NCBI GenBank assembly: GCA_018241365.1 | Contig: JAFEDX010000003.1 | Coordinates: forward strand, 1 to 53,846 | Direction of reading: 5' to 3' | From: Pseudomonadota bacterium | Lineage (GTDB): Bacteria > Pseudomonadota > Gammaproteobacteria > Xanthomonadales > Rhodanobacteraceae | DNA length: 53,846 nucleotides | Shown here: positions 7,599 through 52,264 of the stretch, piece after piece | Numbering within the stretch: the stretch's first letter is position 1 | Layout of the letters: the number at the start of each line of letters is the position of its first letter | Notes under the pieces: model-generated | Told to the model about the DNA's origin: nothing | Databases searched by the model: none | Seen by the model: the letters and a program-made list of their open reading frames with translations, nothing else | Position numbers and translations under genes: made by a program

Positions 7599-7604
7599 GA
7601 CAAC

Positions 7605-13755: not shown

Positions 13756-14513
13756 CGAATGGGTTCGTGATCGAGCCGCTGTCCGAAGACGCGCTGCTGC
13801 TGCGCTTCGGTGACTCGATCGATCCTGCGGTCAATGCGCGCGTGCACGCGGCGGCACGCGCGCTGCGCGACGCGGCGTTGCCGGGCGTCGCCGACATCGC
13901 GCCTGCGTATGCAAGCCTGCTGGCGCGCTTCGATCTCTCCGTCTGGAGCGACGCCGCCGACAGCGCACCGTTCGCACGCATCAGTGCGCGGCTCGTGGCG
14001 CTGGTCGGAAGCATCGCACCTTCCGAACCCTCACCCCTGCCCCTCTCCCGAGGGGAGAGGGGTTCACGGGGGACCGGAGGCCTTTCGCCCGTGATCGACC
14101 TGCCCGTTTGCTACTCCGGCGAATTCGCCCCCGACCTCGCTACCGTCGCCGCACATGCGGGTTTGTCGTCGGACGAAGTCGTCGCGCGTCACACCGCCGC
14201 CGAATACACCGTCGCGATGCTGGGCTTTGCGCCGGGCTTCCCTTACCTGCTCGGACTGGACAAGAGCCTGCACATGCCGCGCCGCGCCAGCCCGCGAACC
14301 CGGGTGCCTGCGGGTTCGGTGGCGATCGGCGGCGCACAGACCGGCATCTACCCCGGTGAACTGCCGGGCGGCTGGCACCTGATCGGGCGCACACCGCGCG
14401 CCTTGTTCGATCCGCAGCGCGATCCGCCTGCACTGCTTGCGCCCGGTGATCGGGTGCGGTTTCAAGCGATCGATGCAGATGAGTTCGCGCGACTTGCGGA
14501 GCGCAACGCGTGA
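13752..14513 (+). CDS. pxpB: 5-oxoprolinase subunit B (KipI family)
   Basis: A 253-residue protein of the KipI/PxpB family. With PxpC and PxpA it hydrolyses 5-oxoproline (pyroglutamate) to glutamate with ATP. The family core is clear: [12 protein letters not shown], the [12 protein letters not shown] motif, and [16 protein letters not shown] with [11 protein letters not shown] near the C-terminus. It begins with GTG overlapping the HIT stop and ends overlapping the pxpC start. Odd: residues about 92-112 ([17 protein letters not shown]) are encoded by a palindromic repeat inserted in frame in the linker between the N-terminal domain and the core. Confidence 0.92.
14027..14080. repeat. Palindromic repeat inside pxpB
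   Basis: The segment holds a perfect 10-bp stem, CCCCTCTCCC (14040-14049) / GGGAGAGGGG (14053-14062), preceded by CCCTCACCCC. The same organisation (ACCCTCACCC, then CTCTCCC and GGGAGAGGGG) occurs in the intergenic element at 29189-29330, so this looks like one half of that MITE-like family. It is read in frame as part of PxpB. Confidence 0.75.
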
Positions 14514-15472
14514 GTATCGAAATAGTCAAACCCGGCCTGCTGACGACCTTGCAGGACCGCGGACGCGCCGGCTTCGCGCACCTCGGCGTCGGGCGCAGCG
14601 GCGCCTTCGACACGTTGGCGCTGCGCATCGCCAACGCGCTGTGCGGCAATCCGGCCAACGCCTGTGGACTGGAAATCACCCTCCTCGGCCCGACCCTGCA
14701 CTTTCACGCAGCCGCGTGGATCGCCGTGACCGGCGCACCGCTGCCCGTTCGCATCGACGGCCGCGAGCAACCGGCATGGGCACCCGTATCGGTACCCGCG
14801 GGCGCCACGCTCACGCTCGGCGCAATGCGTTCGGGATGCCGCAGCTACCTTGCCGTGCACGGCGGATTCGACGTGGAATACGTACTCGGCAGCCGCAGTC
14901 TGGACGTCAACGCCGCGCTCGGGCCCCGGCCCGCACGACCACTGAGGGCCGGCGACACCCTGCCCGTGGCCGCTGGACACAGGCGGCTTGCGGCCACGCC
15001 GGGCTGGTGGCTGGATGCGCGCCCATGGTTCGACGGCGATGCCGTCCGTAGCCTGCGACTGTTGCCCGGAAGTCAGCTCGAACATCTCACCGAAACAGCG
15101 CGCAACGCACTGTTTTCGCAAACATTCAAAGTGCAATCCGACTCGAACCGCACGGGCCTGCGTCTGTCCGGCCCCAAACTGGAATTCGATGCCCCCATCG
15201 AGATGGTCAGCGAAGGTTGCGTACCGGGCCTGCTGCAACTGCCGCCGTCCGGACAACCGATCGTGTTAGGTCCGGAAGGCCCGGTCAGCGGGGGCTACCC
15301 TCGCCTCGGCCAGGTCGTGGCGGCGGACATCCCGCGTCTCGCGCAACTCCGGCCGGGCGATGCGCTACGCTTCGCGCCTTGCGCGTTCGACGCGGCGCTG
15401 GCGGCATGGCGCAAGCGCGAACACGCCCTCGCGCGGCTGGAAGCCGCCATTGCCAAGCGGCTCAAGGCATGA
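14510..15472 (+). CDS. pxpC: 5-oxoprolinase subunit C (KipA family)
   Basis: A 320-residue protein of the KipA/PxpC (biotin-dependent carboxylase-like) family. The N-terminal signature is [30 protein letters not shown]; later marks are LAVHGGFDV and the C-terminal [17 protein letters not shown] with GYPRLGQV. It pairs with PxpB to activate 5-oxoproline with ATP before PxpA completes hydrolysis. The start codon is GTG at 14510, overlapping the pxpB stop by four bases. The stop overlaps the pxpA start (ATGA). Confidence 0.94.
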
Positions 15473-37806: not shown

Positions 37807-38010
37807 CTCCATTCAACCAACCGCACATGGGTCGTCGATTGATCACCCACCTGCTGGGCGGCACCGCGCCACGTGCGAGAACCGCATTGCACACAAGACA
37901 AGCGTGAAAGACAAGACCCGGACTGGGCGCCGCACGACCTGTCGCGTTGGTCCACACGTTGCGCCGCACGCGTGCAGCAGCCAACCAGGCGGCGATTTGG
38001 GGTTACACTG

Positions 38011-38028
38011 CCCAAACATATGCTTGGG
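38011..38028. promoter_or_regulatory. 18-bp near-palindrome centred on the NodT start codon
   Basis: CCCAAACATATGCTTGGG is symmetrical at 8 of 9 pairs and its centre includes the ATG at 38020-38022. It could be an operator or an RNA hairpin that hides the start codon. It may also be chance. Confidence 0.4.
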
Positions 38029-39456
38029 TCCGCAAACCATTGCCGACTGACTGCGCGTGCATGGGCAGCAGCGGCTTTGGGACTCGCGCTGGGTGCGTGC
38101 GTCAGCGTGCAAGTCCCGAAGCTGCCGAACGGCGACCTTCCGGCACACTGGCGAAACGCCTCCGCACTCGGGGAGCAACCCGACCTCACCGGCTGGTGGC
38201 AGCACTTTGGCGATCCCCGCTTGAATGCGCTGGTCGGCATGGCATTGGCGGACAATCCCGATGTCGCGCAGGCCGTTTGGAATCTGCGTGCGGCGCGCGC
38301 GCTCGAGGATGCCGCGGGGGCCGGAATCAAGCCCTCGCTGGCGTTTCGAACCGACGAGCAGTCGAACGCCGCCAACACCGCCAGCTATTTCCAGGCCGGG
38401 TTTGACGCCACGTGGGAAATCGGCCTGTTCGGGCGCGCGGAGGCCAACGGCCATATTGCAAAAGCCAACACGGGTGCCGCCGCAGCCGAGTTGCAATCTG
38501 CACGGGTGTCGCTGGTGGCGGAGGTCGTGCGCGAGTACCTGGAGCTGCGCGCGGCACAGCGCGAGGAAGCATTGCTGGATGCAGCCGCGGGCAAAGCCAG
38601 GCGGAGGCTCGCGCTGATACGCGGGAAGGAGCGCCTGCAATTGGCCACGCGGATCGATGTCGAACAGGCTGCGACCGAAGCGGAGACGGCTGCGACACGG
38701 CTTGCCGATCCGCGCATGGCGATTGCCAGGTCCGCGCAAACCCTTGCGCTGCTGCTGGGCAAGAGCGAGCCGGACCCGGCCTGGTTCAAGCCGGCCTCGC
38801 AGCCGCACCTCGAGGGTGGCAACGTGGTTTCGCTGCCGGCGAACCTGTTGCGCACCCGCCCCGAGATCCGCTACGCGGAAGCCAAGGTGCTGAAGGCCGC
38901 GGGCGAGCTCGGCGTCGCCAAGGCCGAGCTTTATCCGCGTTTGTCATTGGGCGGCGGCCTGACCTTTGCCACCCGGGTGCAAGGCACCGGGCGCCCGGGC
39001 ACGGGTGCCGTCAACGGAATTTTCGGGATCGGACCGTTCATCGATATCCCGCTGTTCGACTGGGGGCAGCGCAGGGCGCAGCGCGATGCACGCGCCGATC
39101 TGCTGCAGGCCGCGTTGGCCGGATACCACAAGGCGGTCCTCGAGGGCGCCGCCCAGGTCGAGACTGGCCTCGCCAACCTGCATGTCACGCGCGAGCGGCT
39201 TGAGCACGCCGATGCTGCGGTGACGACTTCGCAACGCAGCCTGGCATTGAGCGGGAAACTTCAGGCACGCGGCGAATCCGACCAGATGGATCTGATTGCC
39301 GCCGAGCTTGCGCTAGGCCAGGTGGAACTCGCGCAGGCGCAGGCGCGTTTGCAGCACGGGCTGGCGTTCGTGGCCTTGTACAAGGCCCTGGGCGGCGCAC
39401 CGTTGCCGCATACCGACGATGCCGCTGCACGAGCCGCAACCGGACACCAAGGTTGA
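38020..39456 (+). CDS. Outer-membrane efflux lipoprotein, NodT/TolC family
   Basis: A 478-residue protein with a lipoprotein signal (lipobox LGAC, Cys about 26). It has the two OMF repeats: WWQHFGDPRLNALVGMALADNPDVAQA with long helices, and LRTRPEIRYAEAKVLKAAGELGVAKAELYPRLSL, then GPFIDIPLFDWGQRRAQ in the second half, all standard for NodT proteins. It forms the trimeric channel across the outer membrane. ATG 38020 is chosen at the signal peptide; the frame extends upstream to 37873. It overlaps the permease start by four bases (TTGA). Confidence 0.92.
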   Translation: MLGSANHCRLTARAWAAAALGLALGACVSVQVPKLPNGDLPAHWRNASALGEQPDLTGWWQHFGDPRLNALVGMALADNPDVAQAVWNLRAARALEDAAGAGIKPSLAFRTDEQSNAANTASYFQAGFDATWEIGLFGRAEANGHIAKANTGAAAAELQSARVSLVAEVVREYLELRAAQREEALLDAAAGKARRRLALIRGKERLQLATRIDVEQAATEAETAATRLADPRMAIARSAQTLALLLGKSEPDPAWFKPASQPHLEGGNVVSLPANLLRTRPEIRYAEAKVLKAAGELGVAKAELYPRLSLGGGLTFATRVQGTGRPGTGAVNGIFGIGPFIDIPLFDWGQRRAQRDARADLLQAALAGYHKAVLEGAAQVETGLANLHVTRERLEHADAAVTTSQRSLALSGKLQARGESDQMDLIAAELALGQVELAQAQARLQHGLAFVALYKALGGAPLPHTDDAAARAATGHQG

Positions 39457-40580
39457 TCATCCCGCTCGCCCGCAAGATCCTCATCCACGACTGGCGGCGT
39501 TTTCTGCCGGCGATGTTTGCCGTGGCGCTCTCCGGCGTGTTGTTGCTGATGCAGACGGCGCTGGTGTTCGGCATCCTGGGGGCAACCGCCGTGTACATGC
39601 GGGAGTCCAACGCACAGGTGTGGGTGGGTTACCCGGGCACCCAGACCATCGAGCTGGGCCGCCCCATTCCCGTGACCGCGCAGACCGCGTTGCTGGCGGA
39701 CCCGGGAGTGGCGCGGGTCGAACCGTTTGCGTGGTTCAACGGCGACTGGCAGGGGCCGCCACGTGCCGGAGGCGTATCGGTGTTCGTGTCCGGCGTGAGC
39801 ACCGAACCCAATGCATTGATGTTCTCCAGGGTGCTTACACCGGCCCAGCGCGCGCTGCTCGATCAGCCGTTCACGATCCTCGTCGATCGCGCCGAGCTGG
39901 CCAAATTGGGCCTGCCCATCGGCGGACGGGCGTTGCTCAACGGCCGACTCGTGAAGCTCGTCGGTGTGGCCTCGGGGATCAGCGCATTCGGCGGGGTCAA
40001 CGTCGTGGCTTCGCTGGCGACCGCGCGTGCCCTGGACGGCAGTTCCGGCGGCGCAGAGGTCGAATATTACGTCGCCGAACTCAAGCATGGCGCGAATGCT
40101 GCCGCCGTGGCGGCGCGCGTCAACCGCGAAGCGCGCGGTTACAGCGCGTGGACCGCTGCGTCATTCGCGCGTAACGCGGTACTCTATTGGATGTTCCAGA
40201 CTGCCGCCGGCGTCAGTGCGATCTTCCTGGCCGCGGTGGTATTCGTCGTCGGCGCCGTCATCACCAGCCAGACCTTGATGGGCGCGATCACGGGGTCGAT
40301 CAACGAATACGCCACGCTGCATGCACTTGGGGTGGGCCTGCGTCCGTTGCGGAGGGTTGTGCTGGAACAGTCCGCCTGGATCGGAGCGTGCGGACTGGTC
40401 ATCGGGGTAGTGATCAGCCTCGGGCTGCTTGGGCTGGCACAAGCGCAAGGCGTACCGGCAGACATCAACCTGGCGGTCTGGCTGATGTGCGCGGCCCTGG
40501 TGATGGGGATCGCGCTGGTGTCGGGGACTGCCGCCGTGCGCGTCCTGCGCAAGGCAGATCCTGCGTCGCTGTTGCGATGA
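39453..40580 (+). CDS. ABC transporter permease, FtsX/DevC type
   Basis: A 375-residue protein starting at TTG 39453 that overlaps the NodT stop. One N-terminal membrane helix (about 17-42) is followed by a large periplasmic domain (about 43-255) and three C-terminal helices (about 262-290, 312-345 and 350-370), the FtsX/MacB-type plan. The closest pattern is DevC, whose partner ATPase is a separate protein, as here. It contacts the HlyD-type adaptor in the periplasm. The unusual start codon may lower its output relative to the channel protein. Confidence 0.9.
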   Translation: MIIPLARKILIHDWRRFLPAMFAVALSGVLLLMQTALVFGILGATAVYMRESNAQVWVGYPGTQTIELGRPIPVTAQTALLADPGVARVEPFAWFNGDWQGPPRAGGVSVFVSGVSTEPNALMFSRVLTPAQRALLDQPFTILVDRAELAKLGLPIGGRALLNGRLVKLVGVASGISAFGGVNVVASLATARALDGSSGGAEVEYYVAELKHGANAAAVAARVNREARGYSAWTAASFARNAVLYWMFQTAAGVSAIFLAAVVFVVGAVITSQTLMGAITGSINEYATLHALGVGLRPLRRVVLEQSAWIGACGLVIGVVISLGLLGLAQAQGVPADINLAVWLMCAALVMGIALVSGTAAVRVLRKADPASLLR

Positions 40581-41299
40581 GCGCACTGCTCGCCAGCAAC
40601 CTGTACAAGAGCTACGCCAGCGGGAAACTCCGCATCGACGTCCTGCGGGGCTTGTCGATTGCAGTCGAAGCGGGACGGCTGACCCTGATCGAAGGTCCAT
40701 CGGGCTGCGGCAAAAGCACGCTGCTGTCGATCCTGTCCGGGCTGCAGCGCCCGGATGCCGGCAGCGTGACCGCACTTGGCCAGGACCTGTGGCGTGGTGA
40801 CAACGACGCCGTGGACAGGTTCCGGCTGCAACACACCGGTTTCGTGTTCCAGGGCTTCAACCTGTTCTCGGCGTTGAGCGCGCTCGAGCAGGTCATGCTG
40901 CCGCTGGGCTACATGGGCATGACGCGCGCCGAGGCGATCGACCGCAGCCAGGCCGCCCTGGTCGAAGTCGGACTTGGCGATCGCATCGACTCCAGGCCCG
41001 CCGAGTTGTCGGGCGGAGAAAAACAGCGTGTCGCGATTGCACGCGCGCTGGCCAAGCGGCCGCAACTATTATTTGCGGACGAGCCCACCAGTGCCCTGGA
41101 CGCCGCCAGCGGGCAAGTCGTGATCGACATCCTGCGGCGCGTCGCGCATGAGCATGACACCACCGTGCTGTGCGTCAGCCACGATCCGCGCTTGGTGAGT
41201 CACGCGGATCGCGTGCTTGGAATGGAAGATGGCGTGATCCTGAATGACAGGAAGATGCAATCAGTCAGCGGACCTGAAAAGGACGGGAACGTGTCGTGA
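40577..41299 (+). CDS. ABC transporter ATP-binding protein, DevA/LolD type
   Basis: A 240-residue ATPase. Walker A GPSGCGKST (about 41-49), Q-loop FVFQGFNLF, signature LSGGEKQRVAIARAL, Walker B LLFADEPTSALD and switch His in CVSHDPRLV are all intact. ATG 40577 overlaps the permease stop (ATGA). It powers the FtsX-type permease by mechanotransmission, as in MacAB and DevBCA, where substrate moves from the periplasm to the outside. The end overlaps the adaptor start (GTGA). Confidence 0.95.
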   Translation: MSALLASNLYKSYASGKLRIDVLRGLSIAVEAGRLTLIEGPSGCGKSTLLSILSGLQRPDAGSVTALGQDLWRGDNDAVDRFRLQHTGFVFQGFNLFSALSALEQVMLPLGYMGMTRAEAIDRSQAALVEVGLGDRIDSRPAELSGGEKQRVAIARALAKRPQLLFADEPTSALDAASGQVVIDILRRVAHEHDTTVLCVSHDPRLVSHADRVLGMEDGVILNDRKMQSVSGPEKDGNVS

Positions 41300-42213
41300 A
41301 CATCCGCACTTGTTTTGCCGTGGGTACCGCCGTGCTGGCGCTGGCGGTTGCCGCATGCTCCTCGGGTACGCAAGCCCAGTCCGACAGCTCCAGCGCGCCC
41401 GCCTCCTCTTGGCTTGCCGTGGCGCGTGGCCAGGTCGACGTGGAAGGCGGGATGGTGCAAATCGTGCCGCTTGTCGGTGGCGTGGTCGCTTCGGTGGCGG
41501 CAGAACCCGGAGAGCACGTCAAGGCCGGCCAGGTGCTTGCCAGGCTCGATCCACGGGCAGCCGAGATCGGGGTGGCGGTGGCCAGGACGAATGTTGCCCA
41601 GGCCGAGGCCAGGCTTACCGAGTTGCAGGCATCACTGGCACAGGCCAGTTGGGACGCCCGGCACCTTGGCGCAGCAGCCAAGGAGGGGACCGCGACCGGG
41701 GCAGCGGCAGTTGCAGCCGAGACCGGCGTGGCCACCCTCAAGGCAAAACAGGAAGCGGCCAGGGCCGGCCTGGAAGCGACCCGCCATCAACTCGCGAGTG
41801 CGCAACTGGAGCTCGATGAGGCGACCCTACAGGCCCCCATGGCGGGAACCATTGTCACCCGCGATGTCGCGGTTGGCCAAGCCGTAACGGCGGCATCCGG
41901 TCCGCCCTTGTTCAAGCTGTTGCCGGACCGACCCTACATCGTGCGGGCGCAGGTGGACGCCAGGGCCGCCGCCCACCTGCGTCCGGGAATGCATGCCGAC
42001 GTGGTGCGCGACTCCGGTGCCGGGCCGGTGTATTCGGCAACCGTCGTGCGGGTGGGCAAGGTCTTGCAGGCCGCCACCGTGGCCCCGACTCCCCTCGAGC
42101 GTGCGCTTGCCGATGACGTCGATTGCACCCTGAAACTCGAGCCGCCCAAGGCTGGCGTCACGCCACTCAACGTGGGCCAGATCGTGGTGGTGAAATTCCC
42201 GCGCCAACCATGA
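41296..42213 (+). CDS. Periplasmic adaptor lipoprotein, HlyD/RND-type (DevB-like)
   Basis: A 305-residue protein beginning at GTG 41296. It has a lipoprotein signal with lipobox VAAC (Cys about 21). A lipoyl-like half-motif (VASVAAEPGEHVKAGQVLARLD) precedes a coiled-coil hairpin (about 90-175) rich in Ala and Glu, and a second lipoyl half follows (ATLQAPMAGTIVTRDVAVGQ). A beta-barrel domain comes after it. The adaptor links the ABC permease to the NodT channel. It is the last gene of the four-gene operon and converges on the diiron gene 13 bases away. Confidence 0.92.
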   Translation: MNIRTCFAVGTAVLALAVAACSSGTQAQSDSSSAPASSWLAVARGQVDVEGGMVQIVPLVGGVVASVAAEPGEHVKAGQVLARLDPRAAEIGVAVARTNVAQAEARLTELQASLAQASWDARHLGAAAKEGTATGAAAVAAETGVATLKAKQEAARAGLEATRHQLASAQLELDEATLQAPMAGTIVTRDVAVGQAVTAASGPPLFKLLPDRPYIVRAQVDARAAAHLRPGMHADVVRDSGAGPVYSATVVRVGKVLQAATVAPTPLERALADDVDCTLKLEPPKAGVTPLNVGQIVVVKFPRQP

Positions 42214-42226
42214 CGCAGCCGCTGCT

Positions 42227-43159
42227 TCATTTTTCCCGTCCGGACCCGGGGCGGAACCGGCATGCAAGCCGGGCAAAAAACGGCACGAACGTGGGGCGCA
42301 GCAGGCGCGGGTCGTAGCCGGCCATGCGCCGGTCGTTTTCATCCAGGCAGATCTGCAGCAGGTCCAGCAGGCCGAGATCAACCCCGATCTTCTTGCCGCC
42401 AGTCACCGCGAAGTTCGCATCCTGCGCCTCACCCTGCGCGTTGAAGCCGCGCGCAAGCCCGATGCGTTCGTAGATCAGGAACGCCCACACGGTCCAGATC
42501 TTGAGCCGGAACCACGGACGCTTCCACCAGGCGAGTTGGTGCCGATACCACTGCACCCAGTTGGCGAAGAACAGGATGTGGCGGCCTTCTTCCTGGATCA
42601 CCGGCTCGAAGGTGTCGATCAGCGCCATCGGAAAGTAGCCGGTGCGCTTGGCCGCTTCGAACAGGCCGAACGCGAAAAAACTGTCGATGCATTCGCTGTA
42701 ACCGGTGACCATCCATGCCCACTCGGGGTGCTTCGGCGCCGGGTAGTCCGGCTCCGGCGCAAGCTGGATGCCGTATACCTCGACCAGCCGCGAGAGCACG
42801 ACCTTGTGGCGCCCCTCTTCCCACGCGTCCATGTCGAGGGCTTGCTTGAGCAGGGGATCGGTGACGGTGCCGGCGTAGGTCCGGGCGCGGATGCCGGCAC
42901 GGCCTTCGGTCTGCACCGCGATGTCCCAGATCGGCAGTGAAGTCACGCGTTGCAGCGCATCGGGCGCAAGCGTCGGCCAGTCGATGACGGCGGGCTTGTA
43001 CGGATTGTGGGTTTCGAGGAGTTGCAGGCAGAACATCTGCTTGTGGGCGTCGCTGCCGATCCTCACCTTGCCGGGGATCGCAAAGCGCCAGTTGCGCATC
43101 GCGTAATCGGCGGCCGCAACCGCGTCGGCCTTGTCCGGGGTGTGCAGGTGATCTGCCAT
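42227..43159 (-). CDS. Ferritin-like diiron protein, copy 1 (hpn operon end)
   Basis: A 310-residue helical protein. Candidate diiron ligands follow the ferritin-like order Glu ... ExxH ... Glu ... ExxH: Glu in QTEGRAG (about 86), EEGRH (about 115-119), Glu in GYSECIDSFF (about 156) and QEEGRHILFF (about 190-199). It is a clear paralogue of 48919-49806, sharing KVRIGSDAHKQMFC / RIKVGSEEHKALFC starts and all ligand motifs. Ferritin-like diiron enzymes hydroxylate, desaturate or N-oxygenate substrates; this one is not assigned. It lies 49 bases downstream of hpnL on the same strand, so it is probably co-transcribed with hpnIJKL. Lipid modification is the inference from context. Confidence 0.78.
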   Translation of the reverse strand: MADHLHTPDKADAVAAADYAMRNWRFAIPGKVRIGSDAHKQMFCLQLLETHNPYKPAVIDWPTLAPDALQRVTSLPIWDIAVQTEGRAGIRARTYAGTVTDPLLKQALDMDAWEEGRHKVVLSRLVEVYGIQLAPEPDYPAPKHPEWAWMVTGYSECIDSFFAFGLFEAAKRTGYFPMALIDTFEPVIQEEGRHILFFANWVQWYRHQLAWWKRPWFRLKIWTVWAFLIYERIGLARGFNAQGEAQDANFAVTGGKKIGVDLGLLDLLQICLDENDRRMAGYDPRLLRPTFVPFFARLACRFRPGSGREK

Positions 43160-43208
43160 GGCGACTCCATTCTAGGCCGCGAGACGCTGCTCCGCCCAGC
43201 GCCGCCGA

Positions 43209-44234
43209 TCAAACGCGCGTCGAATCGGCGGCATCCGCGCGCGCACGTGCGCGCAGCCGGCGCGCTTCCACCCACTGCCACGACAAGAGCGCGGGAATGC
43301 CGAAGCCGACGTCGCGCAGCCGTTTCACCAGCGACAGCGCCATGGTCACGTCGGCCGGCAAGCCGAACAGGCTGCCGAAACCCACGAAGCTCGCCTCCTG
43401 TACGCCGATGCCGCTCGGGACGAAAAACGCGACGTCGCGCACGATCGCCGCGAGGCTTTCCAGCACCAGCGCTTCCCAGATCGATACCGGGGACCGGAGC
43501 AGCCACAGCGCTACCCACGTCTCGATGCCACCCAGCACCATGCCGGCGAGCTGCCAGCCTAGCGCCACGGCCAGCGGCTTCGGCATCCGCAACAGGGCGT
43601 GCAGGTTGGCATCGAGCTCCGCGGCTGAATCGGCGATGACAGCCGACAGGCGGTGGTTGTCGCCCAGGAAGCGCAACGCCACGCCCTTGACGCGATCGAA
43701 CAGCCGCCCGTTGCGCAGCGCGAAATACAGCACGATGGGCATCGGCAGCGTGACCACGAGCCCGCCGATCAGTCCGTTGGCCACGCGCGTGTCATGCACG
43801 AGGATGATGAGCAGGGCCAGACCGATGGCAGTGAACACGTACCGGTTGACGATGTTCAGCAACACATCGACCAGCACGCTGGTGGTCGCAGCCGCCGCGG
43901 TCAGCGGCCGCAACAGCAGGAGCCGGATGCCGACGAGTTGCCCGCCGACGCTCGCCACCGGCAGCAGGCGGTCCACGGCTTCCCGGACGGCCGCGATCCA
44001 CGTCAGGAACGGGAACGTGGCGCGCCGCTGCGGATCGAATGGACGCAGCAGGGCCTGCCAGCCGCGCGCATCGAGCGCGACCGGGACGATGTGCAGCGGA
44101 ATCAGCCAGAAGACGCTCCAGCCGGAGACTTCAAGCACCACAAGGATGTCGTGGACACCCTCGTGGAGGATCAGCCATATCGCCAAGCCGAGACCGAGGA
44201 GGCCGGCAACGATGGCGAGCAGTTTCGCCTTCAT
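43209..44234 (-). CDS. hpnL: HpnL-type integral membrane protein
   Basis: A 341-residue polytopic protein (about eight helices; for example LLAIVAGLLGLGLAIWLILH at 4-23) of the lysylphosphatidylglycerol-synthase transmembrane family. It includes the pattern RPLTAAAATTSVLVDVLLNI, then VALRFLGDNHRLSA and AAIVRDVAFFVPSGIGVQEASFVGFGSLFG near the C-terminus, typical of HpnL. HpnL is found in hopanoid gene clusters; its biochemical role is not established, though lipid handling across the inner membrane is plausible. Its ATG overlaps the hpnK stop (ATGA). Confidence 0.82.
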   Translation of the reverse strand: MKAKLLAIVAGLLGLGLAIWLILHEGVHDILVVLEVSGWSVFWLIPLHIVPVALDARGWQALLRPFDPQRRATFPFLTWIAAVREAVDRLLPVASVGGQLVGIRLLLLRPLTAAAATTSVLVDVLLNIVNRYVFTAIGLALLIILVHDTRVANGLIGGLVVTLPMPIVLYFALRNGRLFDRVKGVALRFLGDNHRLSAVIADSAAELDANLHALLRMPKPLAVALGWQLAGMVLGGIETWVALWLLRSPVSIWEALVLESLAAIVRDVAFFVPSGIGVQEASFVGFGSLFGLPADVTMALSLVKRLRDVGFGIPALLSWQWVEARRLRARARADAADSTRV

Positions 44235-45043
44235 GCCGGCGTGACGAATCCGCGCGGCACCAGGCCAAGCCCGGCCACGGCGTCGCGCACGCGTGGCGAG
44301 AGCAAGGCGGCGAGTTCATCGGTGTGGCGATAGTCGCGCATGCCGGATGTCAGCCCGCGACGTGTCGCGGGGTGGGCGTAGATCTCGGTCAATCCGCCGG
44401 CAAGCCGGTCCAGGATCCCGAGCAGCGCCTGCTCGTCCATGGCGCCGGTTGCCGCAATGCCGAAGATACGGTCGTTGTGCAAGAGTCCGGCGCGGTCGAG
44501 GCGCATGCCCATCAGGCGCACCCATGGCGCGAGCCACCACGGCATCCCGGGTTCGGCCGGCAGGCGCACCGCGCGCAGCCCGAACCCGCGGCCGATCGAC
44601 AGGACCAGCGACAGGATGGTCGGATGCAGATGGAAGTGCTTGTGGGCGTTGACATGGTCGAGTTCCAGACCGGTGGCGGCGAAGGCCTCGAATTGCGCGC
44701 GTATTTCTGCAGCAAGCTGCCGGCGCACGCGCGGCAAGCAAAAAAAACGCACGCCATCACGCGCCATGTGGTTTCCAAAGCAGCCGTCCGACCCAACGAG
44801 GTCCGGAATCCTTGCCGGCGGCAGCGTGGCACGGCCGTCCGCCAGCACCAGATGCAGGCCCACGGCGAGGCTTGTCAGGCGCTTTGCCCGCGCGACGGCA
44901 TCCGCCGCTGCCGGCGCCGACACCATCAGGCTCGTGGCGCTGAGTACGCCGTGCGTGTGCGCCAGCTCCACGGCTTCGTTGACCGCCACATCCAGTCCGA
45001 AATCGTCGGCGGTGATGATGAGTCCGGCGGCTTTGCCGTGCAT
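44231..45043 (-). CDS. hpnK: HpnK-type YdjC-family deacetylase
   Basis: A 270-residue YdjC/ChbG-fold protein. The catalytic ITADDFGLDVAVNEAV motif (about 10-25) supplies the acidic metal ligands; DHVNAHKHFHLHP (about 128-140) supplies histidines, and EIYAHPATR follows near 220. In Burkholderia cenocepacia HpnK removes the N-acetyl group from the glucosaminyl-bacteriohopanetetrol made by HpnI. It lies 51 bases after hpnJ and is coupled to hpnL by ATGA. The size and motifs match the family fully. Confidence 0.87.
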   Translation of the reverse strand: MHGKAAGLIITADDFGLDVAVNEAVELAHTHGVLSATSLMVSAPAAADAVARAKRLTSLAVGLHLVLADGRATLPPARIPDLVGSDGCFGNHMARDGVRFFCLPRVRRQLAAEIRAQFEAFAATGLELDHVNAHKHFHLHPTILSLVLSIGRGFGLRAVRLPAEPGMPWWLAPWVRLMGMRLDRAGLLHNDRIFGIAATGAMDEQALLGILDRLAGGLTEIYAHPATRRGLTSGMRDYRHTDELAALLSPRVRDAVAGLGLVPRGFVTPA

Positions 45044-45094
45044 GGTTCGTCCGGGCTGGCGCGTGCGATATGACGGCCGCGACCGGCACGGACC

Positions 45095-46651
45095 TCACAT
45101 CTCGTGGGCGTGCAGGAAGTGGAAGAACTCGACGCCCTCGCGCAAGCGGCGCTTGGTCATGTCCCAGCTCGCCAGCATTTCCTTGACGATTTCCCAGATC
45201 TTGGCAGGGCGGAAATAAAATGCGCGATAAAAGCGCTCCACGCCATGGTAGATCTCCTCGCTCGAGAGGTCCGGATAGCTGAGCGCAGCGAGTTGCACGC
45301 CCCGGTCGTTGACGAGATTGTGGCCGCCGGTGTCCTGCAACCAGCCGTTTTCCACCGCCTGCCTGTACAACGCCGTGCCCGGATAAGGCGCGGCCAGCGA
45401 GACCTGGATCGTATGCGGGTTGATGGACTTCGCGAATTCGATGGTCGCGTCGATCGTTGCACGCGTCTCGCCCGGCAAGCCGAGGATGAACGTGCCGTGC
45501 ACAAGGATGCCGAGCTTGCGGCAATCTTCCGTGAAACGGCGCGCGATGTCGGTACGCAGTCCCTTCTTGATGTTGAGAAGGATCTGGTTGTCGCCGGATT
45601 CGTAGCCGACCAGCAGCAGCCGCAGGCCGTTCTCCTTCATGATCTTCAAGGACTCGTACGGCACGTTGGCCTTGGAGTTGCAGCTCCAGGTCCAGCCCAT
45701 GGCGTGCAATCCCCGCGCGATCGTGTACACGCGTTCCATGTTTTCCTTCGACAGGTCCGTGAACGTGTCGTCATCGAACATGAGTTCCTTGACTTCCGGC
45801 ATGTTCTGCTTGATCCAGCGCGCTTCGGCCAGCACGCTTTCGGCCGAGCGGGTGCGGTAACGGTGCCCGCCGACGGTTTGCGGCCACAGGCAGAACGTGC
45901 ACTTCGAACGGCAACCGCGTCCGGTATAGAGCGACACGTAGGGGTGCTTGAGATAGCCGATGAAGTAGTTGTCGATGTTCAGGTCGCGCTTGTAGACCGG
46001 CGCCACGAAGGGCAGCGCATCCATGTCGTGGATGGTCGGCTGCGACACGTTGTTGACCACGTTGCCGTCGGGTCCGAGCCAGGACACGCCACGCACGCTG
46101 GTGAGCGGCTTTTTCTCCGCGATTTCCTTGCAGGCGTAGTCAAACTCCTCGCGGCAGACGAAATCGATGGCCCTGGTCGCCCGCAGCGAGCCTTCCGGAT
46201 CGACCGCGGTTTTTGCGCCGACCATGCCGATGAGGATGCCCGGCCGTCGCGCCTTCAGGAGTTCCGCGAATTTTGCGTCCGTCGGAAACGAAGGTGTACT
46301 GGTGTGGATGATCACCAGCTCGTATTCTTGCGCGATCCCGAGCGTCTCTTCCACGCCGAGGTCGTCCGCGGGCGCGTCCAGCAGACGCGAGCCAGGCACC
46401 ATCGCGGCAGGCTGCGCCAACCATGTCGGGTACCAGAAGCTCTTGATCTCGCGTTTGGCTTGGTAGCGGCTGCCGGCGCCGCCGTCGAAGCCGTCGAACG
46501 ACGGAGCCTGCAGGAAAAGTGTCTTGTAGACGCCGGCAGGTTGACGCATCGCGGTGCGCCCTGCCTCGCCCGGTTTCGCCGCGTGTGCAGGCTGCGTTGA
46601 CGGCGCGGGGTCCTTTCCCAGTGCCTCCGATGCCGATGTGCTCAGATCCAT
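45095..46651 (-). CDS. hpnJ: HpnJ-type radical-SAM, B12-binding-like protein
   Basis: A 518-residue radical-SAM protein. A cobalamin-binding-like N-terminal domain (about 40-195: LFLQAPSFDGFDGGAGSRYQ, KREIKSFWYPTWLAQP) precedes the SAM domain with Cys-x3-Cys-x2-Cys in GCRSKCTFCLWP (about 248-259) and LLLVGYESGDNQILLN. HpnJ carries out the rearrangement that turns the glucosamine head group of bacteriohopanetetrol into the cyclitol ether. ATG 46651 has a good AGGAG site 8 bases upstream, giving about 40 residues ahead of the usual HpnJ start; Met35 (46549) is an alternative. It is 29 bases downstream of hpnI. Confidence 0.88.
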   Translation of the reverse strand: MDLSTSASEALGKDPAPSTQPAHAAKPGEAGRTAMRQPAGVYKTLFLQAPSFDGFDGGAGSRYQAKREIKSFWYPTWLAQPAAMVPGSRLLDAPADDLGVEETLGIAQEYELVIIHTSTPSFPTDAKFAELLKARRPGILIGMVGAKTAVDPEGSLRATRAIDFVCREEFDYACKEIAEKKPLTSVRGVSWLGPDGNVVNNVSQPTIHDMDALPFVAPVYKRDLNIDNYFIGYLKHPYVSLYTGRGCRSKCTFCLWPQTVGGHRYRTRSAESVLAEARWIKQNMPEVKELMFDDDTFTDLSKENMERVYTIARGLHAMGWTWSCNSKANVPYESLKIMKENGLRLLLVGYESGDNQILLNIKKGLRTDIARRFTEDCRKLGILVHGTFILGLPGETRATIDATIEFAKSINPHTIQVSLAAPYPGTALYRQAVENGWLQDTGGHNLVNDRGVQLAALSYPDLSSEEIYHGVERFYRAFYFRPAKIWEIVKEMLASWDMTKRRLREGVEFFHFLHAHEM

Positions 46652-46680
46652 CGCGTTTTCTCCTGTGAGGAGCGACCGCT

Positions 46681-47811
46681 TTATCGCAAGTTTAACTCAC
46701 GCCCTGCCCACGCTACACGACGGCTGGCAAAAGCCCCTCCCCAAACCATTGCGTTCAGCACGTCGCGCAGTACAACCAGCGGCAGGGTACAGCTCGCACG
46801 CCATAGCCATCCCGATATGCGCTCTGCCATGGCAAAGTGCAAGGCGGCACGCGCGACACAGGTGACCGCGAGGAGCACGAGCGCAGCATTCGTCCAGCCT
46901 GCCAGAAAAGCCCCGAGCGTGGCCACGGCAGGCCCGAAGCTGACGAACATGAACGCGTAACCCGCCGGATTGAGCATGCGGATCGTGCGCATCCAGCGCA
47001 ATTCACGCGCAAGCATCTGCCGGGGCTTTCTTTCCGCCACGTCGGTCTGCACCACGTAATCGGACAGTTGGGTCACGAGACCGGCATCGCGCGTGCGCTC
47101 CGCGAGGCGGTAGTCATCCGCCAGTTCGTTGGTAATGCTCTGGAAGCCCCCGATGGCATCCAGGGTTTCGCGGCGCAGCGCCAGCGTTGCGCCGAAGCCG
47201 AACGCGTGCGAGCCGAACAGCTGCGCAATGTGTACCGCAGGCACGAACCATTCATCGATGAACAACACACCCAGGCGCGACCACAGCCCTCCGATCGCCC
47301 GTCCTCGATACAGGCACGTGACGACTCCGATGTCGGGCTGCGCCAGCGGCGCGCACACGCGTTCGAGGTAATCGCGACCCACGCGGATGTCGCTGTCCGC
47401 GATCACCAGCCACGGGTGGCGCGCATGGTGCAGAAGGTTGGTGAGGTTGCTGACCTTGTGGTTCGTGCCGTACAAACGCGCGTCGACGACCACCACGATG
47501 TCCAGCTGGGCGAATTCCGCCTGCAGGCGTCGCGCGACCGCGAGCGCGGGGTCGGCCACGTCGCGCACGCCGAACAGCAGTTGGAACGTGGGGTAGTCCT
47601 GCAGACAAAACGAGCGCAGGTTTTCGTAAAGCAGCGGTTCCGCGCCGTGCAACGGCTTGAGGACGCTCACCGGCGCGAACGTTGTGCCGGCTGCGAGGCT
47701 TCGGCCACGGGCCCTGAACAAGGCCACGAGGGCCAACAGCGCATAGGCGGTCGCAGCGCTGCACAGCGCCAGGCCGATGCCAAAGACCACGGCACTCAGC
47801 ACGGGCGTCAC
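46681..47811 (-). CDS. hpnI: HpnI-type glycosyltransferase (ceramide glucosyltransferase-like)
   Basis: A 376-residue membrane glycosyltransferase. An N-terminal helix (about 5-30) leads into a GT-A domain: FAPVSVLKPLHGAEPLLYENL, VVVDARLYGTNHKVSNL, the metal-binding ADSDIRV and the acceptor-site LARELRWMRTIR, a variant of (Q/R)xxRW. Hydrophobic helices close the C-terminus. HpnI attaches N-acetylglucosamine to bacteriohopanetetrol in Burkholderia. The start codon is GTG 47811, overlapping the stop of the alpha/beta hydrolase (GTGA), so the two are coupled. Confidence 0.85.
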   Translation of the reverse strand: MTPVLSAVVFGIGLALCSAATAYALLALVALFRARGRSLAAGTTFAPVSVLKPLHGAEPLLYENLRSFCLQDYPTFQLLFGVRDVADPALAVARRLQAEFAQLDIVVVVDARLYGTNHKVSNLTNLLHHARHPWLVIADSDIRVGRDYLERVCAPLAQPDIGVVTCLYRGRAIGGLWSRLGVLFIDEWFVPAVHIAQLFGSHAFGFGATLALRRETLDAIGGFQSITNELADDYRLAERTRDAGLVTQLSDYVVQTDVAERKPRQMLARELRWMRTIRMLNPAGYAFMFVSFGPAVATLGAFLAGWTNAALVLLAVTCVARAALHFAMAERISGWLWRASCTLPLVVLRDVLNAMVWGGAFASRRVAWAGRELNLR

Positions 47812-48794
47812 ATGTCACCGCGCTCGGCGCCGACCCCAACCGTTGCGCGCGACGTCGCGGGTCCCGGCGCACCGGCACCCGAAGTCACGGACCCCGGATT
47901 CGAACCTGTCGCACGCAGGGCCAGTTTGTCGACGAACGCCAGGATCGGCGCCCATACCGCATCCATGCTGCCCGCTTCCACGATACCGCCGTGCCCCACG
48001 TCCGGGACAAGGACAAACCGGCTGCCACTGTTGGCCGCCTGCGCAAACAAGGCGATGTGCCGGCCCATGCTCGGTGGCACGTTGGTGTCATCCATTCCCG
48101 CGACCACCAGCAGCGGCTCACGCAGACTGGCCGCAGCTTCGACGTTGTCCCACAGGTCCGGCATGATCGGCTTCAGCCATGCAGGGAGCCCCGGACTGAT
48201 GTAGCTGACCATGTTCTTGGCGCTGCTGAACGCGCCGTACACGATGACGCCCAGCGGCTGCGGCATGAACGCCGACACGTTGTGGAGCGCCACTCCCGTG
48301 CCGAGCGAGTAGCCCAGGACAAACTTCGGGCGCTGGTTGCCGGCCCACTGCGCAAACGCCCGCCACGCGGCCTTGGCATCCTGGTTGAGATTGCGGACAG
48401 TCGCCTTGCCGGTACTGGCTCCAAAGCCCGAGTAATCAAAGCTCATCGACGACAGGTGGTGCTTGAACAGGAAAACCTGGATCCGGGCGAAGTCATGGAT
48501 CGTTTCGCCGTTGCCGTGGAACAGCAGCAGCGCCGGCGTATCCGCTCCGGCATTGACGATCCACGCTTGCAGGCTGCGGCCGCCGCTGTCGACCATGACA
48601 ACGTGGTAGGGCACACCGTACGTTCGGGGTGTATCGGTGCTCGGTGATTGCGTCGCGAAAATGTCGCGTTCCAGCCGCGGGACCAGGGTGGCACGCACGA
48701 CGAACGCAGCCGCGACAACCACGCAGATCGCGATGAAGGTAATCCCGCCCAGCCAGGCGAACAGATGCCGGATTCGACGCAGGCCGTGACTCAT
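47808..48794 (-). CDS. Membrane-anchored alpha/beta hydrolase upstream of hpnI
   Basis: About 328 residues from ATG 48794 (SHGLRRIRHLFAWLGGITFI); a frame to 48977 adds an improbable basic N-terminus. One N-terminal membrane helix (about 12-33) anchors a periplasm- or cytoplasm-facing hydrolase. The nucleophile is in GYSLGTGVALH (GxSxG), the acid likely in VVAGMDDTNVP and the histidine in PDVGHGGIVE. A LLLFHGNGETIHDF oxyanion-loop region is present. The C-terminal 40 residues are Ala/Gly/Pro-rich and probably disordered. It is translationally coupled to hpnI. It may act on a hopanoid or other lipid ester; this is inference. Confidence 0.8.
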   Translation of the reverse strand: MSHGLRRIRHLFAWLGGITFIAICVVVAAAFVVRATLVPRLERDIFATQSPSTDTPRTYGVPYHVVMVDSGGRSLQAWIVNAGADTPALLLFHGNGETIHDFARIQVFLFKHHLSSMSFDYSGFGASTGKATVRNLNQDAKAAWRAFAQWAGNQRPKFVLGYSLGTGVALHNVSAFMPQPLGVIVYGAFSSAKNMVSYISPGLPAWLKPIMPDLWDNVEAAASLREPLLVVAGMDDTNVPPSMGRHIALFAQAANSGSRFVLVPDVGHGGIVEAGSMDAVWAPILAFVDKLALRATGSNPGSVTSGAGAPGPATSRATVGVGAERGDM

Positions 48795-48918
48795 CGCCTG
48801 CGGCCTGTCAACGCCGCAACAATTGGTTTGCATTGGCACCGCAGCGGCGGGTACCTGCGAGACGCACGCCGCAGCGCGATGGTGACTGCATGGCCGAGGC
48901 AGCACACGGGAGTTCCGT

Positions 48919-49806
48919 TCATGCGGCCTTGCGCGCCGCCGGTCCGGACTTGGGCCTGCGCCAGAACCGCGCGGCATCCCAGGCCCGCATGCCGCGCAGC
49001 GCCACGTCGGCGATCGACGGTAACAGGCGCGGCTGCATCAGGTCCGGATCGAATGCGCTCATGCGGCGCGCGTTCTCGCGATAACAGTCCTCGACGAATC
49101 GCCGGAACGAGAATCCCTCCAGGAACATGCTGGCCTGGGTGACGGCGAAATCCTTGCCGTCGTTGGGCTGTTGTCCGCGCTTGACCATGCCCACCAGGCG
49201 ATGGCCGGCACGCCGGTAGAAACGCAGCGACTTCATCGCGCGCCGCACCCGTCCCAGGCCGCGCTGTTTTTCCCGCCATGCCATGTAGTTGATGAAGAAC
49301 ACGATGTGGCGGGTCTCTTCGAACATGAGCATGTCGAAGATGTCGAACAGCTGGTCCGGCATGAACCGGGATTGACGGGCGGTCTTGAACGCCCCGAATC
49401 CCAGGAATGAATCCAGGCATTCACCGAAACCGAAGTCGATGAACGCGGTTTCCAGATCGCCCGGCAAGGCCTCCAGCGGTTGCGCACTGGCATCGATGCC
49501 GTAGCGCTCGATCATCACGCGGATCAGTTCCGCATGCCGGCGCTCCTCGAAGCCCTGCAAGGCAAGCGCAGCATGCACCACCGGGTCATCCACATGCGGC
49601 GTGTAGGCATCGACGATGGCGCCAGCGCGTCGTTCGGTGTGGTAGACCTCCTGCCAGAAAGGCACGCCACGCAAGCGTTCCAGATCCTCGCCACCCAGTT
49701 CGGGCCACGGAAGCGTGTTGGGCTGGTAGTCCTGGTGCGTGTCCATGAATTGCTTGCAGAAAAGCGCCTTGTGTTCCTCGGAACCCACCTTGATTCTTGT
49801 TGTCAT
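48919..49806 (-). CDS. Ferritin-like diiron protein, copy 2 (hpn operon head)
   Basis: About 295 residues from ATG 49806, preceded by GGGAAG; a frame to 49848 is also open. Ligand motifs mirror copy 1: Glu in YHTERRAG (about 63), FEERRH (about 89-94), Glu in FGECLDSFL (about 133) and FEETRHIVFF (about 167-176). These fit a four-helix diiron site. It is 124 bases upstream of the alpha/beta hydrolase on the same strand and leads the probable hpn operon. The two diiron proteins bracket the cluster at both ends. The reaction is unknown; oxygenation or desaturation of a lipid is an inference. Confidence 0.78.
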   Translation of the reverse strand: MTTRIKVGSEEHKALFCKQFMDTHQDYQPNTLPWPELGGEDLERLRGVPFWQEVYHTERRAGAIVDAYTPHVDDPVVHAALALQGFEERRHAELIRVMIERYGIDASAQPLEALPGDLETAFIDFGFGECLDSFLGFGAFKTARQSRFMPDQLFDIFDMLMFEETRHIVFFINYMAWREKQRGLGRVRRAMKSLRFYRRAGHRLVGMVKRGQQPNDGKDFAVTQASMFLEGFSFRRFVEDCYRENARRMSAFDPDLMQPRLLPSIADVALRGMRAWDAARFWRRPKSGPAARKAA

Positions 49807-50215
49807 GTCCGACTTCCCGTTGGGAACGCCGCCAAAACCGTTGTGCAAGTTGCGTGCAACGACGTCAAGAGGCTACGCACTGTGCCGCCATGTGGCGGTG
49901 ATGAGCCAAACCGGGCGTCCAGCTTCAACCGCGCAGAATCGCGCATGCAGTCAACATGGAATATTACGCCCGGAACAGCCGCTGCGCCCAATCGCGGAGG
50001 TGGACACGTGCGTGGGGGTTCTTCGGCATACTGGACAAGACCACCACCCAGGCAACGCTGCTGCCTGGTCGCGCACATCGGCGCCTGGCACGTGCACTTG
50101 ACACAAAACGCGAACACGGGCGACCCACATGTCGCCAACGGCTATGTCCCGCTGCCAAATCCACCATCGACAACTGGATTACGTGGCACCCGAACATCTG
50201 AACGCCTGCGACGGC
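49807..50215. other. Intergenic region of 409 bases without a supported gene
   Basis: It separates the head of the hpn run from the end of the membrane TPR gene. The left end holds the candidate regulatory dyads at 49841-49860. Short frames such as 49956-50201 have no recognisable product or ribosome site. I see no terminator hairpin with a T-tract for the TPR gene, whose 3' end lies here. Confidence 0.5.
49841..49868 (-). promoter_or_regulatory. Candidate operator/promoter of the diiron-hpn run
   Basis: Two adjacent dyads, TTGTGCAA (49841-49848) and GTTGCGTGCAAC (49849-49860), lie 35-55 bases upstream of ATG 49806. On the minus strand a TTGACG -35-like hexamer (49863-49868) precedes them; the matching -10 position (CACAAC) is weak. 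The dyads would overlap the spacer, as expected for a repressor site. No regulator gene is adjacent. Confidence 0.35.
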
Positions 50216-52264
50216 TCAGTCGTGCACGCTGTAGTGCACGTTCGCATACTTCCGCAGCAGCTGCTTGAACTCGGGCGTGTTGCGGATCGGATCGTAGTCC
50301 ACGTCCGTGCGCACGGTGGCGATCGAAATCGTGCCGCCATGCTCGGTTGAAACCAAGGCATCAAGGATCGGCACAGCCTTGTCGGCATGCCCGAGTTGCG
50401 CCTCGATTTTCGCGAGATTCATCAGCATGTCGGCCCCGCCTTGCCAGTTCTTTGCAATCGGCACGAGTGCCACGGCGCGCTGGCTCTCCCGCTCGGCGTC
50501 CTGCTTGCGTCCCAGTCGCGCATAGGCCCAGCCAAGCTGCGCGGATTCGAAACCATTGGCTGCATGATTCGGGGCCGCCAGGATCAGGTCCGCGCAATGC
50601 CGGTATTCCGTCTTCGCCTGGTCGCGCTGCCCGAGCTGCCATTGGGTATCGGCCTGCATTTCACACAAGCTCACAGGACCGTACACCGAGCCGCGACTCG
50701 CGGTGAACAGCGGCAACGCCGCCGCGTAATCGTGCGAGTGATACAGCGCCTGTGCATGGTCCACCAGATGGGTCGGAATTGCCCGCACGTCGGGTGGCGC
50801 GGCCATGATCATCGCCAGCTGCGCAGCGCCGCTGCCGGTTGCGTAGTAGGCCAGGAAATCCCGCATGCCCCACGTCAGCCCCGCGTGGTAGTTGACGTCG
50901 AGCGCCTTCAAGAGGATGCGGTCGGCGGCTGCATATTGATGCCGTTCTCCGTCAAGCCACGCCAACCCCTGCAATGCCAGAACGTTGCGCGGGTCCAGGC
51001 TCACGGCCTGCTGGTAGGCCACGTTCGCAACGTCCAGATGCCCCAAGTTGTATTCGATATCGGCCAGCGCCAACTGCGCGTTGGCATCGCGCGGATTCAG
51101 CGCCAGCGCCTGCTTGAACTCCGCCTGCGCCGCTACCTCGTCGTTCTCCGCCCACTCGTGGTAGAAACCCGCTGCGATGTGCGCTTCCGGCAGGTTCGGA
51201 TTCAATGCCAGCGCCTTGTCGAACGCCTGCTTGCTCTTCGCCGACATCGCCTTCGCATCGGCGGAAGGGACGAAATTGATCGTCCACACGTAGGCATAGG
51301 CCAGCCGCGCCCAGGCCAACGCGAATTGCGGATCAGCCTCGACGGCTTCCTGATAAGCCGAGATCGCGGCGTCGATGTCCGGCTGCTTCCAGCTAACATC
51401 GGCGCGCTGTTGTGCCGCTTCGCCGCGCAGTAAGGCCTGATAGGCATATGGGTTGTGCGTGGGTGCCTCGGCGAGCGCGCGCTTCTCTTTCGGCAGCAGC
51501 GTCACCTGCAGCGCATCCGCCACTTTCGCTGCCACGTCGCTCTCTACCGTGAACACGTTGTCGAGGCTGCGATCGTAGGTTTCCGCCCATACCTGCGTGC
51601 CATTGCCGGCGTCGATCAACTGCAGGCTGATGCGCGCCTCGTTGCCAACCTTCTGCACGCTGCCTTCCAGCACGTTGCTGACGCCAAGCTGCTGGCCTAT
51701 GGCCCGCACGTCTTCCGGATGGCTGGCGTATTTGTCGGTGGAGGTGCGCGCAATCGTCTTCAGACCGGAAAGGCGCATCAGTTGGGTCAGGATCTGCTCC
51801 TGCATGCCAGCCGCGAAATAGGCGTTGTCGCGATCGGGCGACAGGTTTTCGAATGGCAGCACCGCAACGGACCTGGCGCCGGCTACGACACTAGGGGCCA
51901 CCGAAGACCGGGAGCCAAAAGCCTCGGTGCGCCAAAGCACCACCGTCACAACGATCGAAAACACGACCAGTCCGAGGATGGCGAAATCCATGCGGCGCAA
52001 GCGGCCACGCGCGCTGCCCTCACCCGTATCGCGGCGCAGGCCCGAAGGGCCGATCTCGTAAAACCACGCCAGCAACAGCGCGACCGGAAACCCGGCGAGC
52101 ACGACCAGCACCGCCAGCCGCTGCGCCCAGATCGAAATTTCGAAAACGGGAAGAACCTGGGTGATGACCTGCGCCAGCAGCCAACCGATCGCGGCATAGG
52201 CCACAGCGACGCGATAGACATGGCGACGTCGGAGTTCCGCCAGAAAGGAACCGAAAGCCCCCAT
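50216..52264 (-). CDS. Membrane-anchored FlgO-like/TPR protein
   Basis: A 682-residue protein. The N-terminus ([19 protein letters not shown]) resembles that of the gene at 10764; hydrophobic helices lie at about 20-40, 47-67 and 93-110. The FlgO-like module starts [20 protein letters not shown] (about 130), with [20 protein letters not shown] and [12 protein letters not shown]. About ten TPR units follow (for example [19 protein letters not shown]). The end, [18 protein letters not shown], is the usual terminus of this protein type. It matches the modules of the giant left-edge regulator but has no winged helix. Role unknown. Confidence 0.85.

What the first reader, a model, noticed from the sequence alone, without database searches (positions are those of the whole stretch)
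42227..49806. hpnI-J-K-L cluster in a seven-gene run, with no hopanoid-core gene in view
Seven minus-strand genes with short gaps or overlaps run diiron-2, hydrolase, hpnI, hpnJ, hpnK, hpnL, diiron-1. HpnI, HpnK and HpnJ are the known steps that put a glucosamine-derived cyclitol ether on bacteriohopanetetrol. Squalene-hopene cyclase, squalene-synthesis genes (hpnC, hpnD, hpnE) and hpnH/hpnG are not visible here. Either the core lies elsewhere in the genome, or the head-group machinery works on another lipid, with extra oxidative and hydrolytic steps added. Three enzymes beyond the described pathway make this the best candidate for a new lipid-modifying system.
Basis: partly seen in the sequence, partly recalled or inferred. 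Interest (0 to 1): 0.78.

Follow-up and report, generated by a model that had tools for sequence, protein, structure and literature searches.

The report
Candidate iron oxygenases tailoring bacterial hopanoids
Two iron-dependent enzymes of a family without a name sit in an operon for bacterial sterol-like lipids (hopanoids) and were found only beside hopanoid-making genes in the genomes sampled, which makes them candidates for tailoring steps whose genes are still unknown.

Summary
HpnI/J/K/L pass NCBIfam cut-offs. SHC and HpnH are not in the window but lie on another contig of the same genome, with HpnA, HpnG-like, HpnB-like, squalene-synthase-like and mevalonate genes, so the alternative-lipid idea is not supported.

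The two diiron proteins are the real find. The window copies hit nothing in Pfam/NCBIfam at E<=1e-3. They form two paralogous clades with an E..ExxH..E..ExxH site invariant in 60 of 60 sequences and R2/ferritin-like predicted folds. Of 299 Pseudomonadota genomes 12 carry one; all 12 have SHC, and 0 of 259 SHC-less genomes carry one, though 28 of 40 SHC genomes lack it. All 49 searched genomes with an hpn-unlinked copy have SHC. D2 often lies inside hpn clusters. Genes for hopanepentol/hexol and for hopanoid unsaturation were called unknown in 2025 (PMC12583986). I propose side-chain hydroxylase first, ring desaturase second; my data do not separate them. The hydrolase is not conserved.

The parts
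48919..49806 (-).
   Evidence: ATG start and alignment; no Pfam/NCBIfam hit at E<=1e-3; ligands E72, E102/H105, E143, E178/H181 (numbering of the 309-aa ORF) invariant in 60 of 60 rows; AlphaFold2 pLDDT 80, Foldseek to RNR R2/R2lox
47808..48833 (-). Alpha/beta-hydrolase with a hydrophobic N-terminal stretch (ORF opens at 48977; in-frame ATGs at 48833 and 48794); probably an accessory or chance member
   Evidence: PF12146, PF00561; homologue in G008 (57%), absent between D1 and HpnI in G003, no hit in 80 named loci; starts
46681..47811 (-). HpnI, BHT N-acetylglucosaminyltransferase
   Evidence: TIGR03472 432 bits, cut-off 310
45095..46651 (-). HpnJ, B12-binding/radical SAM enzyme (glucosamine to cyclitol)
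   Evidence: TIGR03471 798 bits, cut-off 577.6
44231..45043 (-). HpnK, YdjC-like deacetylase
   Evidence: TIGR03473 371 bits, cut-off 232.6
43209..44234 (-). HpnL, putative membrane protein (flippase-like)
   Evidence: TIGR03476 306 bits, cut-off 195.65
42227..43159 (-).
   Evidence: ligands E85, E115/H118, E156, E191/H194 invariant in 60 of 60 rows; AlphaFold2 pLDDT 84, pTM 0.84; Foldseek to RNR R2, R2lox, AurF; gene context

Best explanation
D2 and D1 are two paralogous O2-dependent, ferritin-like diiron oxygenases that tailor hopanoids. The operon makes a composite bacteriohopanepolyol from BHT supplied by the core locus on contig C101: HpnI adds GlcNAc, HpnK deacetylates, HpnJ contracts the sugar to a cyclitol ether (known steps). 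D2, and in a nested subset of genomes D1, oxidise the hopanoid itself. I commit to hydroxylation of the unactivated CH2 groups of the BHP side chain: D2 at C-31 (tetrol to pentol), D1 then at C-30 (pentol to hexol). Shown: gene linkage, co-occurrence with SHC, invariant ligand pattern, predicted fold class, D1 found only with D2. Inferred: catalysis, metal, substrate, position, order.
For: (1) Co-occurrence: D in 12 of 299 genomes, all 12 among the 40 with SHC (Fisher p 7e-12; by genus 11 of 11, p 4e-11; not corrected for tree shape). 49 of 49 searched genomes whose D2 is not beside hpn genes have SHC. In 61 close genomes the same 6 carry D and HpnJ (SHC was not searched in that set). (3) Not cyclitol-specific: 4 of the 12 D genomes have no HpnJ hit at E<=1e-60. 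(4) Ligand pattern invariant in 60 of 60; fold like RNR R2 and R2lox, D2 also AurF; weak profile hits to AurF (12 of 26 D2 members at E<=0.05, best 7.6e-4) and to the Mg-protoporphyrin ester cyclase model NF010172 (7 of 13 D1 members, best 1.9e-4), which is, by recalled knowledge, AcsF, a diiron oxygenase that oxidises an unactivated alkyl side chain. (5) D1 in 13 of 38 D genomes, each also with a D2-side copy, in tandem in 7: fits two successive steps. (6) B. cenocepacia carries D2, and its strain K56-2 was annotated by MS as making pentol cyclitol ether (PMC8560942, passages); the same passage names Azotobacter vinelandii among fully characterised pentol makers, and A. beijerinckii carries D2 inside its hpn cluster.
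Against: No biochemistry. B. cenocepacia also makes unsaturated hopanoids (annotated as delta-6, position not proven), so it does not tell hydroxylase from desaturase. A Rhodoblastus MAG (order Hyphomicrobiales by recalled taxonomy) has D2, while PMC12583986 Table 3 gives at most 1% pentol/hexol for its Hyphomicrobiales. D is optional: 28 of 40 SHC genomes lack it, among them 3 of the 8 SHC genomes of the window's own class (G159, G323, G329), and 64 of 92 in the class of G244; if any of these makes pentol another enzyme must. Nostoc makes pentol and was not tested for D. Foldseek E-values are only 0.007-0.02, best TM-scores about 0.5, rmsd mostly 7-15 A. One search scored at most 8 candidates per genome and may have missed some D.
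Confidence: 0.45

Rival explanations
1. D2 and D1 are the missing hopanoid ring desaturases (delta-6, and delta-11 for D1): ferritin-like diiron enzymes that introduce double bonds into the ring system, acting like soluble acyl-ACP desaturases on a triterpenoid.
For: Same co-occurrence, linkage and diiron evidence as the best explanation. Genes for BHP unsaturation were unknown in 2025 (PMC12583986 section 33). Unsaturated BHT and pentol cyclitol ethers are annotated in B. cenocepacia. A nested D1 within D2 would also fit delta-6 with a rarer delta-6,11.
Against: In PMC12583986 Table 3 high BHP unsaturation is nearly limited to Acetobacteraceae, Skermanella and Afipia (4% in Hypericibacter, 1% in a few others), whereas pentol/hexol is broader. 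Unsaturation in Azotobacter was not mentioned in the passages seen. Earlier authors favour membrane sterol-desaturase-like proteins. None of this tests D2 itself.
Confidence: 0.33
2. D2/D1 are oxidoreductases of the hopanoid pathway acting elsewhere: on the cyclitol/glucosamine head group, as 32-oxo-forming alcohol oxidases, or as redox helpers of HpnJ.
For: Tight linkage to HpnK, HpnL and HpnJ in the window and relatives; within 40 SHC genomes D leans towards HpnJ (8 of 12 against 9 of 28, p 0.08); in 61 close genomes D and HpnJ coincide.
Against: 4 of 12 D genomes have no HpnJ hit, and D2 lies near SHC in one of them, G191; 9 genomes with HpnJ over cut-off lack D. In L059 D2 sits beside SHC, but that 7.1-kb contig is too short to exclude HpnJ elsewhere.
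Confidence: 0.12
3. D2/D1 are non-catalytic or stress-related ferritin-like proteins (metal or peroxide handling) that merely travel with hopanoid genes.
For: Ferritin-like folds are versatile; two D2 members weakly hit Ferritin_2 and two hit Rubrerythrin.
Against: 0 of 259 SHC-less genomes carry D; beyond the ligands many residues are invariant, among them E274 and R278 of D2, which suggests a specific active site.
Confidence: 0.07
4. One reading: hpnIJKL plus the extra enzymes act on a lipid other than a hopanoid.
For: SHC and HpnH are not on the window's contig.
Against: SHC (779 bits), HpnH (500), HpnA (484) and HpnG-like and HpnB-like genes in the same genome.
Confidence: 0.03

Closest known systems
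HpnI-HpnK-HpnJ pathway to BHT cyclitol ether (TIGR03472, TIGR03473, TIGR03471)
   Same: All three enzymes over cut-off, plus HpnL, in one run of genes
   Different: Two diiron paralogues bracket the run; these are not part of the described pathway
AurF N-oxygenase / R2-like ligand-binding oxidase / class I RNR R2 (ferritin-like diiron carboxylates)
   Same: Two ExxH and two further Glu on a helical bundle; weak profile and Foldseek matches
   Different: No significant family match for the window proteins; extra invariant E274/R278; in the 299-genome draw found only in SHC genomes
AcsF (aerobic Mg-protoporphyrin monomethyl ester cyclase)
   Same: Weak NCBIfam hits (NF010172) in 7 of 13 D1 members, best 1.9e-4; oxidises an alkyl side chain (recalled)
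   Different: Window D1 scores 14.2 bits against a cut-off of 391; the operon is a hopanoid one
Sterol-desaturase-like (FA hydroxylase superfamily) candidates for hopanoid desaturation, incl. hpnX
   Same: Proposed for the same open question (PMC6460317 passages; PMC12583986 section 33)
   Different: The PMC6460317 candidate is a histidine-rich integral membrane protein and the PMC12583986 one lies outside the hpn clusters; D1/D2 are ferritin-like carboxylate proteins often inside them

Membership tests
hpnIJKL composite-hopanoid operon | HpnI, HpnJ, HpnK, HpnL each over the curated cut-off and adjacent | tested here: met
Hopanoid producer genome | SHC and HpnH in the genome | tested here: met
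   TIGR01507 779 bits and TIGR03470 500 bits on C101
Hopanoid producer genome | Squalene route (HpnCDE or squalene synthase) and HpnG over curated cut-offs | tested here: inconclusive
   Squalene-synthase-like gene 114.5 bits (cut-off 286.75), HpnG 139 (187.1): homologues below cut-off; HpnC and HpnE were not searched genome-wide
Ferritin-like diiron carboxylate oxygenase superfamily | E ... ExxH ... E ... ExxH ligand set | tested here: met
   Invariant in 60 of 60 rows
Ferritin-like diiron carboxylate oxygenase superfamily | R2/ferritin-like helical bundle | tested here: inconclusive
   Foldseek probability up to 1.00, but best E 0.007-0.02 and TM about 0.5
AurF family (PF11583) | Score over Pfam gathering cut-off | tested here: not met
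   Window D2 11.4 bits against 29.6; window D1 no AurF hit
Sterol desaturase / FA hydroxylase family | Pfam/NCBIfam match of the family | tested here: not met
   No such match for the window's D1 or D2, D2 relatives in Pfam or D1 relatives in NCBIfam
BHP side-chain hydroxylase (activity class without a known gene) | O2-dependent conversion of tetrol to pentol | not testable with these tools
   Needs mutants or expression with LC-MS

The most novel reading that the evidence does not exclude
D2 and D1 are the long-missing aerobic enzymes that hydroxylate bacteriohopanetetrol at C-31 and then C-30 to give the pentol and hexol series: a new diiron oxygenase family inside hpn clusters that was not recognised as a candidate, so that pentol/hexol hopanoids become gene-traceable biomarkers.
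Probability: 0.4. Interest if true: 0.82.

Novelty: new variant of a known kind. Interest (0 to 1): 0.7.

Why it matters
The 2025 survey of alphaproteobacteria PMC12583986 (sections 32 and 33 read, section 26 in passages) says the genes for BHpentol/hexol and for unsaturated BHPs are unknown and that no candidate was identified near the hpn clusters. A family that follows SHC and often sits in those clusters, without annotation of the window copies in Pfam or NCBIfam, makes the question directly testable and would give geobiologists a gene marker for these hopanoids.

Tried and rejected
Alternative-lipid idea: rejected after SHC, HpnH and further core genes were found in the genome. Hydrolase as a system member: not conserved. 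Cyclitol-specific role for D: 4 of 12 D genomes lack HpnJ. Conserved neighbours or redox partner beside hpn-unlinked D2 (ORFs of 100 aa or more within 7 kb, groups in 6 or more of 55 loci): apart from D2 and ORFs overlapping it, one gene recurred (28 of 55, not identified), with its overlapping reverse ORF (26). Annotation of D2 in three plasmid-collection records: none present. Promoter/terminator scan 49700-50300: nothing found. First tree was wrong because 13 rows were translated on the wrong strand; replaced. That scan kept the 80 best matches to D2, so it says nothing about D1.
Full report
Observation. HpnI, HpnJ, HpnK and HpnL all exceed their NCBIfam cut-offs. The spacing fits one operon: 4-bp overlaps at hydrolase/hpnI and hpnK/hpnL, gaps of 29 bp (I/J), 51 bp (J/K) and 49 bp (L/D2), and about 85-125 bp between D1 and the hydrolase. 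D1 starts at ATG 49806. No sigma-70-like promoter or terminator was found in 49700-50300.

Where the core is. The window is contig C156 of a 3.23-Mb, 222-contig genome. The same genome carries on C101 (L002) SHC (TIGR01507, 779 bits), HpnH (500 bits), HpnA (484 bits), an HpnG homologue (139 bits, below its cut-off of 187.1), an HpnB homologue (328 bits, below 379.25), a squalene-synthase-like protein (TIGR01559, 114.5 bits, below 286.75), and an HMG-CoA reductase-mevalonate kinase fusion, a second kinase and diphosphomevalonate decarboxylase. The operon therefore has an ordinary hopanoid supply. Same-genus genomes G008 and G005 hold contigs of the same length (11,821 and 179,307 bases) as records titled Rhodanobacteraceae bacterium, so the organism is probably of that family (inference).

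The diiron proteins. D1 and D2 share 32% identity. The window copies hit neither Pfam nor NCBIfam at E<=1e-3, nor a solved structure by sequence with a convincing score. Some relatives hit weakly: AurF (12 of 26 D2 members, best 7.6e-4) and the Mg-protoporphyrin ester cyclase model NF010172 (7 of 13 D1 members, best 1.9e-4). In 60 aligned sequences the pattern E, ExxH, E, ExxH is invariant. AlphaFold2 models (D2 pLDDT 84, D1 pLDDT 80) match RNR R2, R2lox and, for D2, AurF in Foldseek, with probability up to 1.00 but best E of only 0.02 (D2) and 0.007 (D1) and TM about 0.5. The tree splits them into two clades, D1 with 13 rows and D2 with 47, support 100/100. G405's D2-side copy has a long branch, so its place is unsure.

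Distribution. In 61 relatives the same 6 genomes have D and HpnJ, none discordant. In 299 Pseudomonadota genomes D is in 12, SHC in 40 (39 over cut-off), HpnJ over cut-off in 17. All 12 D genomes have SHC; 8 have HpnJ and 4 do not; 9 HpnJ genomes lack D, and 28 SHC genomes lack D (Fisher tests). Of these 80, 25 have at least two hpn/SHC genes on the held stretch. Of the 55 without, 50 were given to an SHC search, 49 were held, and 49 of 49 have SHC over cut-off. D1 occurs in 13 of the 38 D genomes, each also with a D2-side copy, in tandem in 7.

Gene order. In the window's relatives D2 follows HpnK-HpnL in G000, G003, G005, G008 and G032 and stands alone in G021; D1 is near HpnI in G003, on the HpnI-HpnJ contig in G008, far from the cluster in G032, and was not found in G005 and G021. 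Dyella, Rhodanobacter, Azotobacter, Azomonas: I-J-K-L-D2-A-(squalene-synthase-like)-SHC-G, with HpnA on the other strand. G191 has D1 and D2 flanking a cluster with HpnH, SHC, HpnB and HpnA. In the 55 unlinked loci, mostly Burkholderia and relatives, D2 has no hit to the hpn proteins I compared within the held stretch.

Function. PMC12583986 (abstract, sections 14, 15 part 1, 18, 19, 30, 32, 33, and passages) states for alphaproteobacteria that the genes for pentol/hexol and for unsaturation are unknown and that no candidates were identified near the hpn clusters. PMC8560942 (passages) annotates BHT, unsaturated BHT, pentol and unsaturated pentol cyclitol ethers in B. cenocepacia by mass spectrometry and names Acetobacter, Azotobacter vinelandii and Nostoc as organisms with fully characterised pentols; Acetobacter and Nostoc were not tested for D by name. 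PMC6460317 (passages) proposes a membrane sterol-desaturase-like protein for hopanoid unsaturation. A diiron carboxylate oxygenase fits either missing reaction. I favour hydroxylation: D2 and D1 as two successive side-chain steps, the AcsF likeness, and the pentol record of Azotobacter; each is weak.

Not in print, as far as searched. Searches for hopanoid with ferritin-like, desaturase, diiron, and hydroxylase/aminopentol listed no paper whose title or start of abstract describes this family; subscription journals are mostly missing from the library, and most listed papers were not opened.

Limits.

Noticed in passing
L002 (contig C101 of the window's genome), 2940-15103: The hopanoid core locus also holds mevalonate-pathway genes (an HMG-CoA reductase-mevalonate kinase fusion, a second GHMP kinase, diphosphomevalonate decarboxylase), and its squalene step is a squalene-synthase-like gene; no separate HpnC/HpnD pair was seen there.
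   Followed up: partly
L123 (G346) against G032 and the window: A D1 copy in a genome of another class (G346) groups closely with the D1 copies of the window's family, which suggests recent horizontal transfer.
   Followed up: partly
L015, 1926-2825 (IMG/VR contig): A D2 grouping with Burkholderia copies lies on a contig catalogued as viral, possibly host DNA beside a provirus.
   Followed up: no
window 37873-42213, +: Next to the operon on the plus strand: an outer-membrane efflux-like protein, an FtsX-like permease, an ABC ATPase and a HlyD-like protein, apparently an export operon (names by sight, not scanned).
   Followed up: no
window 45095-49806: HpnJ matches the BchE model, D1 members weakly match the aerobic Mg-protoporphyrin cyclase model, and the hydrolase matches the BchO model (all below cut-off): a curious echo of the bacteriochlorophyll cyclase steps.
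   Followed up: no
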